Shown here: positions 20,360 to 24,460 of the stretch, piece by piece
How positions within the stretch are numbered: position 1 is the first letter of the stretch
How the letters are laid out: each line of letters begins with the position of its first letter
NCBI GenBank assembly: GCA_018711305.1
Contig: DVIL01000030.1
Span: forward strand, 1-47,491
Source: Candidatus Coprenecus stercorigallinarum
GTDB taxonomy: Bacteria; Bacteroidota; Bacteroidia; Bacteroidales; UBA932
Length of the DNA stretch: 47,491 nt
Direction: 5' to 3'
Translations under genes and position numbers: made by a program
Notes under the pieces: generated by a model
Told to the model about the DNA's origin: nothing
What the model saw: only the letters and a program-made list of their open reading frames with translations
Database searches by the model: none

Positions 20360-21721
20360 TTAGAGCGTACCTTGTTTCAGTTTCTCCACGTAGGCGTTGA
20401 TGCGCTGCATTTCCTTGGGTATGTCGATTGCCTGGGGACAATGCTCGTTGCATTGCCCGCAGCCGATACAGTGGTCGGCCTGACGGAGTTTGGGTACGCT
20501 GCGGTCATAGCCTATAAGGAATGCGCGGCGGGCCTGACGGTAGTTGCTGTCGGAGCTGCTGACGGAGAGGTTGCCCTCATTGACGCACTTGTTGTAGTGC
20601 AGGAGCACTCCGGGTATGTCGATGCCGTAGGGGCAGGGCATGCAGTACTGGCAGTCGTTGCAGGGGATGGTAGGGTATTCGTGCATCTGGCGGGCAGTCT
20701 CCTCGAGGAAGGCCTTGTCATCATCGGTCAGGGGCACGAGAGGGGAGTAGGTGCGGATATTGTCCTGCAGGTGCTCCATGTAGGTCATGCCGCTGAGAAC
20801 CGTCAGGACCATATCGGGTGAGCCGGCGAAGCGGAATGCCCAGGATGCGACGCTGCTTTGAGGGTCCTGCTCTTTGAGGCGGGCGGCGATGCGGTCGGGA
20901 ACATTGGAAAGGCGGCCGCCGAGCAGGGGCTCCATGATAATCGAGGGGATGTTCCTCTTGCAAAGCTCTCCGTAGAGGTATTCGGCATTGACGTTGCCGG
21001 GTGTGGCATGGCCCCAGTCGAGGTAATTGAGCTGGATCTGGACGAAGTCCCAATGGATGTCATCGTGCATGGCCAGCACTTTGTCGAAGACTTCCTGCTG
21101 TCCGTGGAAGGACCAGCCGAGGTGACGTATGCGGCCTGCCTCACGTTCCTTGATGAGAAAGTCCAGCATCCCGTTGTCAATGTATCTTTTCTGGAAATCC
21201 TCCATGTTGCGGCCTATCGAGTGCAGCAGATAGTAGTCGATGTAGTCGGTCTGGAGGTCGATGAACGACTGGCGGTACATGGCCATCGAGCCTTCGCGGC
21301 TGGGGTCGCCGAAATTGGACAGCTTCGTGGCAATATAGTAGGAGTCCCTCGGGTAACGCTTGAGGGCTATGCCGGTGGCATCCTCCGAGAAGCCGCGCAG
21401 GTATGTCGGAGCCGTGTCGAAATAGTTTATACCGTGTTCTAAGGCGTAGTCAACCAGAGCATTGACCATCTCCTGGTCTATTTCCTGATTCTCTCCTTCG
21501 GCGGCATGTCTCATGGGCCACCTCATACAGCCGTATCCGAGCAGGGATATGCGGTCGCCGTTGAGATTGCGGTATGTCATTTTACCTTTTGGAACCTCTG
21601 CTGCCTGGCTGTGGTTCTTGTCGGAAGCGCATGCCGAGGCCATTACGGTGGCGGTGCCTGCGGCGCCTGCTATTTTGATGAAGTCTCTTCTTGAAAGTCT
21701 GTTGTTGCTGTCCATAATCAT
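20360..21721 (-). CDS. Aldo/keto reductase with Tat signal and C-terminal 4Fe-4S domain
   Basis: 453 residues from 21721; the in-frame ATG at 21715 would give 451 and is equally plausible. A twin-arginine signal (RLSRRDFIKIAGAAGTATVM) precedes the TIM-barrel aldo/keto reductase domain (YGCMRWPM, INYFDTAPTYLRGFSE, DYYLLHSIG). The C-terminal 90 residues hold two cysteine sets, CNDCQYCMPCPYGIDIP and CIGCGQCNEHCPQAIDIP, so it probably takes electrons from a ferredoxin-like donor. This fusion is common in anaerobes; substrates are mostly unknown. The TAAATTTG box at 21746-21739 on the minus strand may be its promoter. Confidence 0.92.
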   Translation of the reverse strand: MIMDSNNRLSRRDFIKIAGAAGTATVMASACASDKNHSQAAEVPKGKMTYRNLNGDRISLLGYGCMRWPMRHAAEGENQEIDQEMVNALVDYALEHGINYFDTAPTYLRGFSEDATGIALKRYPRDSYYIATKLSNFGDPSREGSMAMYRQSFIDLQTDYIDYYLLHSIGRNMEDFQKRYIDNGMLDFLIKEREAGRIRHLGWSFHGQQEVFDKVLAMHDDIHWDFVQIQLNYLDWGHATPGNVNAEYLYGELCKRNIPSIIMEPLLGGRLSNVPDRIAARLKEQDPQSSVASWAFRFAGSPDMVLTVLSGMTYMEHLQDNIRTYSPLVPLTDDDKAFLEETARQMHEYPTIPCNDCQYCMPCPYGIDIPGVLLHYNKCVNEGNLSVSSSDSNYRQARRAFLIGYDRSVPKLRQADHCIGCGQCNEHCPQAIDIPKEMQRINAYVEKLKQGTL

Positions 21722-21781: not shown

Positions 21782-21789
21782 TATATTTG
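21782..21789 (+). promoter_or_regulatory. -7 box for the structured RNA
   Basis: TATATTTG fits TAnnTTTG exactly and places a start near 21796, about 11 bases before the outer stem of the RNA. The expected -33 position carries AATG rather than TTTG. Confidence 0.5.
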
Positions 21790-21796
21790 TGGCAAG

Positions 21797-21979
21797 AATG
21801 AATGAAGGAAGCGTTATGCTTTTCTTGTAAATCGGAAACCTGAGAAATTTTCAATTGACACAAGAGAAAGCAGAGCTCTTCCCACGCTATACAGCGTGGG
21901 ATGCTTTGTCGTATTTGTGTCAAGGTTTTCTCAGGACCTCCGATTTCATAGGGCATCGCAGTTCCACGCTTTCTTTTTA
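21797..21979 (+). ncRNA. Rod-shaped structured small RNA candidate (6S-like)
   Basis: The segment folds as one long hairpin with consecutive stems: 21807-21814/21966-21973 (8 bp), 21816-21819/21953-21956 (4), 21829-21835/21940-21946 (7), 21839-21847/21927-21935 (9), 21855-21863/21915-21923 (9), 21867-21872/21902-21907 (6) and 21881-21888/21893-21900 (8, loop ATAC). About 51 pairs in 167 bases, most of them Watson-Crick, broken by internal loops at 21820-21828/21947-21952 and 21848-21854/21924-21926. A U-rich run (21971-21979) follows the closing stem. The rod shape with a more open region near the middle and a TATATTTG box upstream resembles 6S RNA or the Bacteroidales-1 RNA motif; that identity is inference. 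The 81-codon ORF on the opposite strand is not credible. Confidence 0.65.
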
Positions 21980-22010
21980 TCAACCTCATTAAAAGTCTTC
22001 AGGAACTGCG
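21957..22010 (+). promoter_or_regulatory. Alternative pairing between RNA bulge and downstream sequence
   Basis: CGCAGTTCC (21957-21965), unpaired in the rod structure, is the exact reverse complement of GGAACTGCG (22002-22010), 18 bases before the lipoprotein ATG. Transcripts that read through could form this second hairpin. Its role is unknown. Confidence 0.4.
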
Positions 22011-22027
22011 GGACACCGTATTAAACA

Positions 22028-24460
22028 ATGAAAAAACATCTGATTCTGATGTGTGTCTGCGCAATGGGCCTTTCGGCCTGCAGTCTTGACGAAGTACGGC
22101 AGGACATTGACGCGCTGGAGAACAGGGTTGCCGCTCTCGAGGAGTGGCAGGCTTCGCTCAATTCTGACATTCTGGCTCTAAAGCAGCTCGTGGCGGGGCT
22201 CGAAGAGCGCAATCTCATTACGTCGGTAACCCCTGTACTGGAGCAGGGAGTGGAGGTAGGTTACCGTATCACCTTCCAGACGGGAGACCCTATCGTCATC
22301 TATCACGGTGAGGACAGCAGCTACATCCCCCTCTTCGGTGTGGCTGAAAACGATGCAGGAGACTATTGCTGGACTCTTGACGGAGAGTTCATAAAGGACA
22401 AGGACGGCAACCTGATACCTGCCTCGAGCGGAATAGCCCCTCAGGTACGTATCAATTCCGACAAAATATGGGAAATCTCTACCGACGGAGGCCAGACATG
22501 GAAATCAACCGGCGTACCGGCTACAGGCGAGAAAGGCGACACCGGTGATGCCCTCTTTGCAGATATCGACTACACCACCGATCCCGAAAGCGTAACCTTT
22601 ACCCTTGCTGACGGTACAGTGCTCGTCATTCCCCGCTGCATGGAACTCGGAATCGGCTTTGCCGACGGCAACGGCATCTATGCCATCTCCCCCGACAACA
22701 ACGTGATAGAGCTCATACTCACCGGTATCACCGCCGACAACTACAACGCCATCATCGCCGAGCTGAAAGCAGAGGACGGAACGTCCGACATCGATATCGC
22801 GACGAAGGCAGGGGACGAGGTTGTAGTCACTCCTCCGACCTTCAATGAGGCGGGAGTATACAACGGAGATGCTAAAATCACCATCAACAAGGAAGGCTCT
22901 GCAGGCGAACAGGCGCTCCTTAAAGTCACCCTGCTTGACAACGATGGCAATGAAGTGACGTCTTCCCGGGTAATCGAGTTCTATGGAAATGTTCTGGAGG
23001 CTGCAGCACAGACAGGTGGACAATTAACCTTGCAGGAAGATATGGTAATTTCAAATACAGTGGTTGTACCGGAAGGAAAGACTCTCGAATTGGATTTAGG
23101 AGGCCATACCTTGAGCAATACTTCAGATATTTGGGACGAACAGGGTGGTCAATGGTCGTATCTTTCAGTGCGTGGCGGAACTTTAATAATAAAGAACGGA
23201 ACAATAGATGCTAAGGAGAATGACTGCTATGCCATCGATGTCCAGGATGGAGGAAAGGTGATTATTGAGAGTGGAACATACAAGGGAAATGTACATGCCG
23301 TGTATGTGACTGAGGGTGAGATCGTGATAAAAGGCGGAACATTCAGCGTCAAACAGAAATTCTCGAACCCGACAAAAGCAGACGAGTTCGTCATCAATTG
23401 TCTTGATGAAAGTTATAGAAACGGAACAGCTTCTGTAACCATTACAGGAGGATCCTTTGAAAACTTCAACCCTGCCAACTGTATGGCCGAAGACCCCGGT
23501 ACAAATTTTGTCCCCGAAGGCTATTGCTCGAAGATATCAGATAGTCAGGACGGCAAGACCATCTATACCGTCACCCAGACCACTGAGACCACTACAGCAG
23601 AAGACTTCTCGGCAGCTATAGAAGCCCAGGCTTCGGAGATAGTGCTGGGGGCGGATGTTAATTTACAGCAGAATATACAACTATCGAAAAGACAGAAAAT
23701 CGATCTTGGAGGAAATACTCTCACAGTAAATAGTGTACAGGCGAAGAACGATAACTCAGAGTTACTTATCAGCAATGGTACAGTAAAATTGTCAGGGGCA
23801 TATGGTAATGGAATTGAACTTGTTGCGGCCAATACAACACTAACTCTTGACAATGTTGTATTGGATGCATCTGCAATATCGAACGCAGCAATAACAAGCG
23901 GAAGCAATGATGTGAGCGAGTGGTGTAATAATACTCTGATAATAAGAAATTCAACAATAAATGCTTCAAATAATCAAGCGGCTGGAATTCTTTTTGAAAA
24001 TGCTCATACAATTACACTTGAAAACACTACAGTTAATCATGACTACTTTGGGTTAACACAGAATGGTGTAAATCCCGGTTCTAAAGTTACCTTGAAAAAT
24101 TGCAATATTTCCGGGACTTATAGCGGAATTTATCTCTCGAATCATGCAAATGGAGCGAAGAATACACTTGTCGTAGAAGGAGGAAGTATTCACAGCGAAG
24201 AAGAATCCGCCATAGAAGTGAAAAAGACGGATATAACTGTTCGCGATTGTGTGTTGTCTTCAGACGCGGCTACTCAGAGTTATTCTGTGAACGGAAGTGG
24301 GTCAAATGGTATTGGCTATGGTATAGTTCTTGCGGGATATAAAGTTGGAACACCTTACGAAGGAACGACTGTCTTCGAGAATCTTACTTTCAACCTACCT
24401 GCTGAAAATGCTATTAACATATTGAAGTATAATGGTTCAGAAGGTGTTAGAGTAGAGTAA
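22028..24460 (+). CDS. DUF4988 lipoprotein with right-handed beta-helix
   Basis: 810 residues. Signal peptide with lipobox LSAC (Cys18), a coiled coil (about 20-60, VRQDIDALENRVAALEEWQA), then the DUF4988-type region with IVIYHGEDSSYIPLFGV and a short collagen-like GEKGDTGD, an Ig-like stretch to about residue 330, and two beta-helix segments (about 335-500 and 520-800) with repeated ELDLGGHTL, KNGTIDAKEN, TITGGSFENF-type strands. Such proteins are surface lipoproteins, some with polysaccharide-lyase or glycan-binding roles; no catalytic site is evident. The second half is visibly richer in A and T than the first. It lies downstream of the structured RNA and ends before its own terminator. 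Confidence 0.85.
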   Translation: MKKHLILMCVCAMGLSACSLDEVRQDIDALENRVAALEEWQASLNSDILALKQLVAGLEERNLITSVTPVLEQGVEVGYRITFQTGDPIVIYHGEDSSYIPLFGVAENDAGDYCWTLDGEFIKDKDGNLIPASSGIAPQVRINSDKIWEISTDGGQTWKSTGVPATGEKGDTGDALFADIDYTTDPESVTFTLADGTVLVIPRCMELGIGFADGNGIYAISPDNNVIELILTGITADNYNAIIAELKAEDGTSDIDIATKAGDEVVVTPPTFNEAGVYNGDAKITINKEGSAGEQALLKVTLLDNDGNEVTSSRVIEFYGNVLEAAAQTGGQLTLQEDMVISNTVVVPEGKTLELDLGGHTLSNTSDIWDEQGGQWSYLSVRGGTLIIKNGTIDAKENDCYAIDVQDGGKVIIESGTYKGNVHAVYVTEGEIVIKGGTFSVKQKFSNPTKADEFVINCLDESYRNGTASVTITGGSFENFNPANCMAEDPGTNFVPEGYCSKISDSQDGKTIYTVTQTTETTTAEDFSAAIEAQASEIVLGADVNLQQNIQLSKRQKIDLGGNTLTVNSVQAKNDNSELLISNGTVKLSGAYGNGIELVAANTTLTLDNVVLDASAISNAAITSGSNDVSEWCNNTLIIRNSTINASNNQAAGILFENAHTITLENTTVNHDYFGLTQNGVNPGSKVTLKNCNISGTYSGIYLSNHANGAKNTLVVEGGSIHSEEESAIEVKKTDITVRDCVLSSDAATQSYSVNGSGSNGIGYGIVLAGYKVGTPYEGTTVFENLTFNLPAENAINILKYNGSEGVRVE

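What the first reader, a model, noticed from the sequence alone, without database searches (positions are those of the whole stretch)
21797..21979. Rod-shaped small RNA, possibly the 6S RNA of this lineage
Seven stacked stems, about 51 base pairs in 167 bases, with a promoter-like TATATTTG just upstream and a U-rich end. Nothing in the neighbouring genes explains such a structure. Length, single-rod shape and an open middle region agree with 6S RNA or the Bacteroidales-1 motif. If it matches neither, it is a new small RNA class.
Basis: partly seen in the sequence, partly recalled or inferred. Interest (0 to 1): 0.75.

Follow-up and report, generated by a model that had tools for sequence, protein, structure and literature searches.

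The report
Portable structured RNA leader of Bacteroidota
The rod-shaped RNA is real but is not 6S RNA: it looks like one copy of a widespread, apparently undescribed family of folded messenger-RNA beginnings that gut and related bacteria carry in front of many unrelated, mostly exported-looking proteins.

Summary
The rod exists (RNAfold -77.6 kcal/mol, z -9.15), but it is not 6S or Bacteroidales-1. No Rfam family matches at the rod in the window or in 25 homologous loci, and three 6S-type models find nothing over cut-off in the host genome.

Comparison shows a 5' leader of the gene at 22028 (810-aa DUF4988 protein) and a large family: model R1 matches 112 of 393 genomes of the order, and 14 genomes chosen for having copies hold 4-19 matches each. 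Among 201 distinct copies a TAnnTTTG box lies 40-60 nt before the rod in 147 of 196 (shuffles about 3). An ATG lies 40-70 nt after it in 124 of 195, against 5 of 148 on the divergent side. The rod covaries. The 171 downstream proteins form 106 clusters and look exported more often than controls (92 of 125 against 157 of 561). That the leader controls translation is inferred; its signal is unknown.

The parts
21782..21789 (+). TATATTTG, promoter -7-like box (TAnnTTTG)
   Evidence: Read. In the family a TAnnTTTG starts 40-60 nt before the rod in 147 of 196 copies and 20-40 nt before it in 18; shuffles about 3 each. The window belongs to the second group (25 nt).
21807..21972 (+). Rod core, match of covariance model R1
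   Evidence: 149.4 bits, E 1.9e-35. R1 was built from 18 copies including this one, so its score here is by construction.
21804..21814 (+). Closing stem P1, 5' strand (pairs with 21966-21976)
   Evidence: Window fold. The family P1 columns pair in 98.4% of cells but are nearly invariant.
21829..21836 (+). Stem P2, 5' strand (pairs with 21939-21946)
   Evidence: Window fold. In A6, 8 of 8 pairs of this helix have double changes.
21839..21847 (+). Stem P3, 5' strand (pairs with 21927-21935)
   Evidence: Window fold. Family forms CCUGAGAAA/UUUCUCAGG and CGUAGGAAA/UUUCCUACG; 4 of 8 pairs with double changes.
21855..21864 (+). Stem P4, 5' strand (pairs with 21914-21923)
   Evidence: Window fold. 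5 of 5 counted pairs with double changes in A6 (helices 5 and 6).
21870..21909 (+). Distal arm P5 with apical hairpin 21880-21901
   Evidence: Window fold. 6 of 13 pairs with double changes; 97.9% of cells paired (helix 7).
21958..21965 (+). Pseudoknot 5' arm GCAGTTCC inside the rod, next to P1
   Evidence: Complementary to 22002-22009. Own arms score 14.29 against 11.71 (sd 0.16) for swapped arms, n 200; 7 of 7 columns with double changes.
22002..22009 (+). Pseudoknot 3' arm GGAACTGC in the tail hairpin loop
   Evidence: As above.
21995..22014 (+). Tail hairpin P6 (21995-21999 with 22010-22014, two or three G-U pairs)
   Evidence: Read. The family helix is weaker on A6: 58.3% of cells paired, 6 of 6 pairs with double changes, tail alignment ragged. 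The window's own nested fold prefers another short hairpin at 22007-22020.
22028..24460 (+). Downstream gene, 810-aa DUF4988 protein with lipoprotein-like N terminus
   Evidence: ORF; PF16378 E 6.4e-28. Its ATG is 55 nt after the rod end, within the family mode.

Best explanation
The rod is the main part of a cis-acting 5' leader RNA transcribed with the gene at 22028, and belongs to a large multi-copy family of promoter-plus-leader modules in Bacteroidota. Shown by comparison: a conserved, covarying rod; a pseudoknot in which the rod's last internal loop, directly beside closing stem P1, pairs with the loop of a tail hairpin; a promoter box at a set distance before it; and a start codon at a set distance after it, in front of many unrelated, mostly exported-looking proteins. 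Inferred: the pseudoknot arm ends a median 22 nt before the ATG, near the edge of a ribosome footprint, and the phylum lacks Shine-Dalgarno sequences, so forming or opening the tail pseudoknot most likely sets how well ribosomes load. The signal (second messenger, protein, sRNA, temperature) is unknown; unrelated targets suit a global signal better than a pathway product.
For: Family-wide layout: TAnnTTTG 40-60 nt upstream in 147 of 196 (shuffles 3.0); first ATG of an ORF of at least 60 aa 40-70 nt downstream in 124 of 195, divergent-side control 5 of 148. Structure: 59 pairs on 81 sequences, 90.8% of cells paired against 82.2% shuffled, 40 pairs with double changes against 27.5. Pseudoknot: 14.29 against 11.71, sd 0.16, n 200; 14.07 against 10.76, sd 0.24, in the 108 copies without the commonest arm; arm end to ATG median 22 nt in 127 placed copies. 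171 proteins in 106 clusters; no Pfam family in more than 4 of 106; exported-looking 92 of 125 against 157 of 561. Lack of Shine-Dalgarno sequences: passages of PMC9723704 and PMC7366714.
Against: No transcript, probing or reporter data. Some copies pair poorly at the pseudoknot (e.g. L023, L094, L059, L129, L032), and 71 of 195 do not have an ATG in the 40-70 nt bin. Helix P6 is only 58.3% paired on A6. The window lacks the 5' hairpin printed for many relatives. No coherent gene function or ligand emerged.
Confidence: 0.6

Rival explanations
1. A constitutive mRNA-stabilising or translation-enhancing leader: 5' hairpin and rod shield the message or present the start codon, with no signal sensed.
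For: Very diverse targets with no common pathway; promoter and leader conserved together as one block in genome G329.
Against: Detailed conservation of internal loops and a covarying pseudoknot is more than a stabilising stem needs.
Confidence: 0.22
2. A mobile DNA repeat (MITE-like) or recombination site whose palindrome works as DNA; nearness to genes is incidental.
For: Multi-copy, found on plasmid and phage-labelled records; three copies are followed by a shared non-coding TTTGATACCG-containing sequence.
Against: Orientation and spacing to ATG, a promoter box at set distance and RNA-type covariation with G-U pairs. Target duplications were not searched for.
Confidence: 0.08
3. A free or processed small RNA of a new class that happens to lie upstream of genes (UTR-derived sRNA).
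For: Compact stable rod with its own promoter box.
Against: T-run at the rod end only in 31 of 200; the pseudoknot reaches beyond the rod towards the ATG.
Confidence: 0.08
4. The 6S RNA (or Bacteroidales-1 RNA) of this lineage.
For: Length and single-rod shape; no 6S model finds a candidate over cut-off elsewhere in the host genome, which is 94% complete.
Against: No Rfam match at the rod; several copies per genome in relatives; patchy presence; constrained spacing to ORFs; no large open centre.
Confidence: 0.02

Closest known systems
6S RNA / Bacteroidales-1 (RF00013, RF01685, RF01693)
   Same: Length near 180 nt, single-rod shape, Bacteroidetes
   Different: No model match; multi-copy in relatives; ORF at constrained distance; tail pseudoknot
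Multi-copy second-messenger riboswitches such as c-di-GMP-I (recalled, not tested)
   Same: Works-like comparison: structured 5' leader with several copies per genome before unrelated, often exported proteins
   Different: Structure unlike any Rfam model at the thresholds used; ligand unknown
Flavo-1 (RF01705)
   Same: Widespread Bacteroidetes RNA motif
   Different: No cmscan match in 25 homologous loci (11 at gathering score; 14 at E up to 1). Flavo-1 hits are reported as indistinctly sense or antisense to transcribed regions (passage of PMC9723704)
Uncurated human-microbiome candidates of Fremin and Bhatt 2021 (PMC8040213), e.g. HMP2_1881 and HMP2_4078
   Same: Bacteroidetes; HMP2_1881 (108 bp) lies near radical SAM domains and was expressed, HMP2_4078 (109 bp) is palindromic and near phage domains (passages); some leaders here precede HxsD, a gene of a radical-SAM-containing system (TIGR03976; system recalled)
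   Different: Sequences not seen (supplements not readable here), so overlap is neither shown nor excluded

Membership tests
6S RNA (RF00013, RF01685) and Bacteroidales-1 (RF01693) | Match to the family covariance model | tested here: not met
   No match at the rod; no match over cut-off in the host genome
6S RNA (RF00013, RF01685) and Bacteroidales-1 (RF01693) | Large single-stranded central bubble in a rod | tested here: not met
   Largest internal loop in the window MFE is 7 by 3 nt (read)
6S RNA (RF00013, RF01685) and Bacteroidales-1 (RF01693) | Housekeeping gene present throughout the lineage (recalled) | tested here: not met
   112 of 393 genomes of the order (at most 7 candidates scored per genome); 13 of 19 of the genus, 3 of them strongly; 4-19 matches in 14 chosen genomes
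6S RNA (RF00013, RF01685) and Bacteroidales-1 (RF01693) | Binds RNA polymerase and templates pRNAs | not testable with these tools
   Needs biochemistry or small-RNA sequencing
cis-acting structured 5' leader | Conserved, covarying RNA structure | tested here: met
   pseudoknot
cis-acting structured 5' leader | Between a promoter and a start codon, same strand | tested here: met
   147 of 196 and 124 of 195
cis-acting structured 5' leader | Co-transcribed with the gene | not testable with these tools
   No RNA data
Metabolite riboswitch | Targets share a pathway | tested here: not met
   106 clusters, no Pfam or NCBIfam family in more than 4 of 106
Metabolite riboswitch | Binds a ligand | not testable with these tools
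   Needs in-line probing
MITE-like repeat | Terminal repeats and target-site duplications | not tested
   Block edges were seen but duplications were not searched
MITE-like repeat | Insertion independent of gene position and orientation | tested here: not met
   Downstream 124 of 195 in the 40-70 nt bin against 5 of 148 divergent

The most novel reading that the evidence does not exclude
A Bacteroidota-wide, portable translation-control module: one pseudoknotted RNA leader, carried with its promoter in front of over a hundred unrelated protein clusters (mostly exported-looking), that opens or closes ribosome access in a phylum without Shine-Dalgarno sequences in response to one global signal. 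It would define a hidden post-transcriptional regulon of accessory genes, including genes on mobile elements.
Probability: 0.35. Interest if true: 0.9.

Novelty: new variant of a known kind. Interest (0 to 1): 0.72.

Why it matters
If right, many accessory genes of gut bacteria share an RNA-level control that I could not find in Rfam 15 or in the full-text searches made. It would make directly testable how translation initiation can be regulated in a phylum without Shine-Dalgarno sequences.

Tried and rejected
6S and Bacteroidales-1: rejected by models, copy number and context. Anti-phage defence theme: a PADLOC scan of 106 cluster representatives gave 33 families, the 25 shown each in one member. 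Pathway theme: no Pfam or NCBIfam family in more than 4 of 106. Terminator at the rod end: the pattern scan marks the apical hairpin (21880-21901) and a site at 21653-21667, not the rod end, and the T-run is not conserved. Co-inheritance with DUF4988: of 23 loci with homologues, one has a rod (L300, 46.6 bits). Alternative helix UCUUGU/ACAAGA: own against swapped 15.83 against 13.97 (sd 0.40) in divergent copies but only 14.22 against 13.81 and 14.51 against 14.02 in the two closer sets; relatedness is not controlled, so it stays a lead. Column-wise counting of it was given up because the columns are misaligned. Literature: full-text searches found no description. PMC9723704 and PMC8040213 were seen as outline and passages, PMC7366714, PMC2864571 and PMC10994844 as passages; no supplement was read.

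Rows dropped. A1 used 18 of 25 copies then in hand: L015, L024 and L025 (truncated or divergent) and four near-duplicates were left out by hand. Of 135 matches were analysed (an edge-cut duplicate and an antisense echo dropped); of 81 (two cut at contig ends, two antisense echoes and one weak hit dropped). The 209 became 201 distinct. A6: 139 copies below 93% similarity and scoring at least 60 bits, 100 printed, 81 aligned; the 19 left out were chosen by eye, some with odd tails, so A6 leans towards the structure. Its nested structure was predicted on A6 itself and P6 was placed by hand. The swap test used 200 copies without that choice; related copies are not independent in it. The 171 proteins leave out copies without an ATG-started ORF of at least 60 aa within 150 nt, and repeated N termini. 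The exported-protein rule is a simple hydrophobicity and lipobox test, and control ORFs may include spurious ones. One search scored at most 7 candidates per genome; counts include some opposite-strand echoes and weak matches. The shared block from about -78 to about +42 is clear in G329 (14 of 15 pairs at each edge); in G241 it is mixed, and in G098 and G441 similarity covers little more than the rod on the 3' side.

Full report
What was checked. The strand 21797-21979 folds far better than chance (z -9.15, 0 of 200 shuffles as good). Rfam at gathering score gives one match in the whole window, a tRNA. Around the rod at E up to 10 it gives five chance hits, four on the minus strand and one on the plus strand outside the rod, all of eukaryotic or archaeal-type families (the type is recalled).

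The family. The region is single-copy in the host genome (model search adds only an antisense echo). At DNA level 10 of 99 relatives including the host carry it, three of them in more than one place. It also occurs in 2 phage-labelled and 5 plasmid records and 11 viral contigs with an exact 20-mer. An alignment of 18 copies gives a 48-pair consensus rod, 15 pairs with changes on both sides. Covariance model R1 matches 112 of 393 genomes of the order and 10 of 296 in a phylum sample, the host plus nine listed as same class. In the genus 13 of 19 match, three strongly (149 bits or more) and the rest at 59 bits or less. In 14 genomes chosen because they have copies it finds 4-19 matches each, some weak or antisense echoes. 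Rods of 25 random copies fold with z -8.7 to -4.2.

Anatomy, 5' to 3'. First a TAnnTTTG box, 40-60 nt before the rod in 147 of 196 copies against about 3 in shuffles. Many printed relatives then show a short hairpin and a GACAT motif (read by eye, not counted; not seen in the window). Then comes the rod P1-P5, a tail hairpin P6, and the ATG. On 81 sequences, 90.8% of cells of the 59-pair structure are paired against 82.2% in shuffles, and 40 pairs have double changes against 27.5; sliding the partners by 1-3 columns drops pairing to 38-46%. P1 is nearly invariant, while P2, P3 and P4 exchange pairs freely.

The pseudoknot. The rod's last internal loop, directly beside P1, is complementary to the tail loop (window 21958-21965 with 22002-22009). 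Arms of the same copy fit much better than swapped arms: 14.29 against 11.71, sd 0.16, n 200; and 14.07 against 10.76, sd 0.24, in the 108 copies without the commonest arm. All 7 columns show double changes, 84.4% of cells paired. Some copies fit poorly (e.g. L023, L094, L059). P6 itself is only 58.3% paired on this alignment. A divergent long variant in the genus (L285) keeps the arms AACTCC and GGAGTT (read). A further pairing, UCUUGU with ACAAGA, is supported mainly in divergent copies and overlaps rod stems; it may be an alternative fold.

Context. The first ATG of an ORF of at least 60 aa lies 40-70 nt after the rod in 124 of 195 copies; the divergent side gives 5 of 148. Where the arm could be placed (127 copies) it ends a median 22 nt before the ATG. 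The 171 downstream proteins fall into 106 clusters, the largest of 15. No Pfam or NCBIfam family covers more than 4 of 106 representatives, and PADLOC gives scattered single hits. They look exported more often than controls: 92 of 125 against 157 of 561, odds ratio 7.2, by a simple rule. The window gene is a DUF4988 protein with a lipoprotein-like start. Of 23 loci with homologues from its taxonomic family one has a rod, so leader and gene come and go separately. In genome G329 the block shared by copies runs from about -78 to about +42 in 14 of 15 pairs, that is, promoter to end of P6, with no detected similarity beyond; G241 is mixed, and G098 and G441 show shorter blocks.

Interpretation. 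A free 6S-like RNA does not predict spacing to start codons, several copies, or a pseudoknot reaching towards the ATG; a cis-acting leader does. Control of translation is the simplest mechanism for that position in a phylum without Shine-Dalgarno sequences (passages). A constitutive stabiliser is not excluded, no RNA data were available, and the signal is unknown.

Novelty. No Rfam 15 family matches at the rod in the window or in 25 homologous loci. The full-text searches found no description. PMC8040213 lists thousands of uncurated candidates, among them Bacteroidetes ones near radical SAM genes (passages), so earlier partial detection is possible. I call it a new family within the known kind 'structured 5' leader', unusual for the breadth of its targets.

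Noticed in passing
L045, L122, L134 just after the rod: Three copies are followed not by P6 and an ORF but by a shared sequence containing TTTGATACCG, as if a mobile element ended or inserted at the rod's 3' end.
   Followed up: partly
L098, L099, L119, L120, L138, L147 between P6 and the ORF: A second repeated stretch, GGTTGCGCCCGACACG-AATAAGGGAT-like, lies between P6 and the start codon in these copies (read by eye).
   Followed up: no
L020:5725-7339: Two leaders 1.45 kb apart, nearly identical in their 5' half but different in the 3' half, before different genes: possible duplication with recombination.
   Followed up: no
window 21807-21972, P1 and P5 strands: P1 and the apical stem repeat the same AGCGU/ACGC sequences, so their strands could swap partners (P5 3' strand AGCGTGG with P1 3' strand CCACGCT). 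Seen by eye only.
   Followed up: no
L285 and other long variants in the genus: Several genus members carry a longer, weaker-scoring variant (about 190-220 nt); L285 keeps the complementary pseudoknot arms.
   Followed up: partly
whole host genome (G000): None of three 6S-type Rfam models finds a hit over cut-off in this 94% complete genome, so its 6S RNA remains unidentified.
   Followed up: partly
L026, L049: Leaders precede a DarT-like gene (L026) and a gene related to lincosamide nucleotidyltransferases (L049 by its protein start; family), so accessory genes of very different kinds carry it.
   Followed up: no
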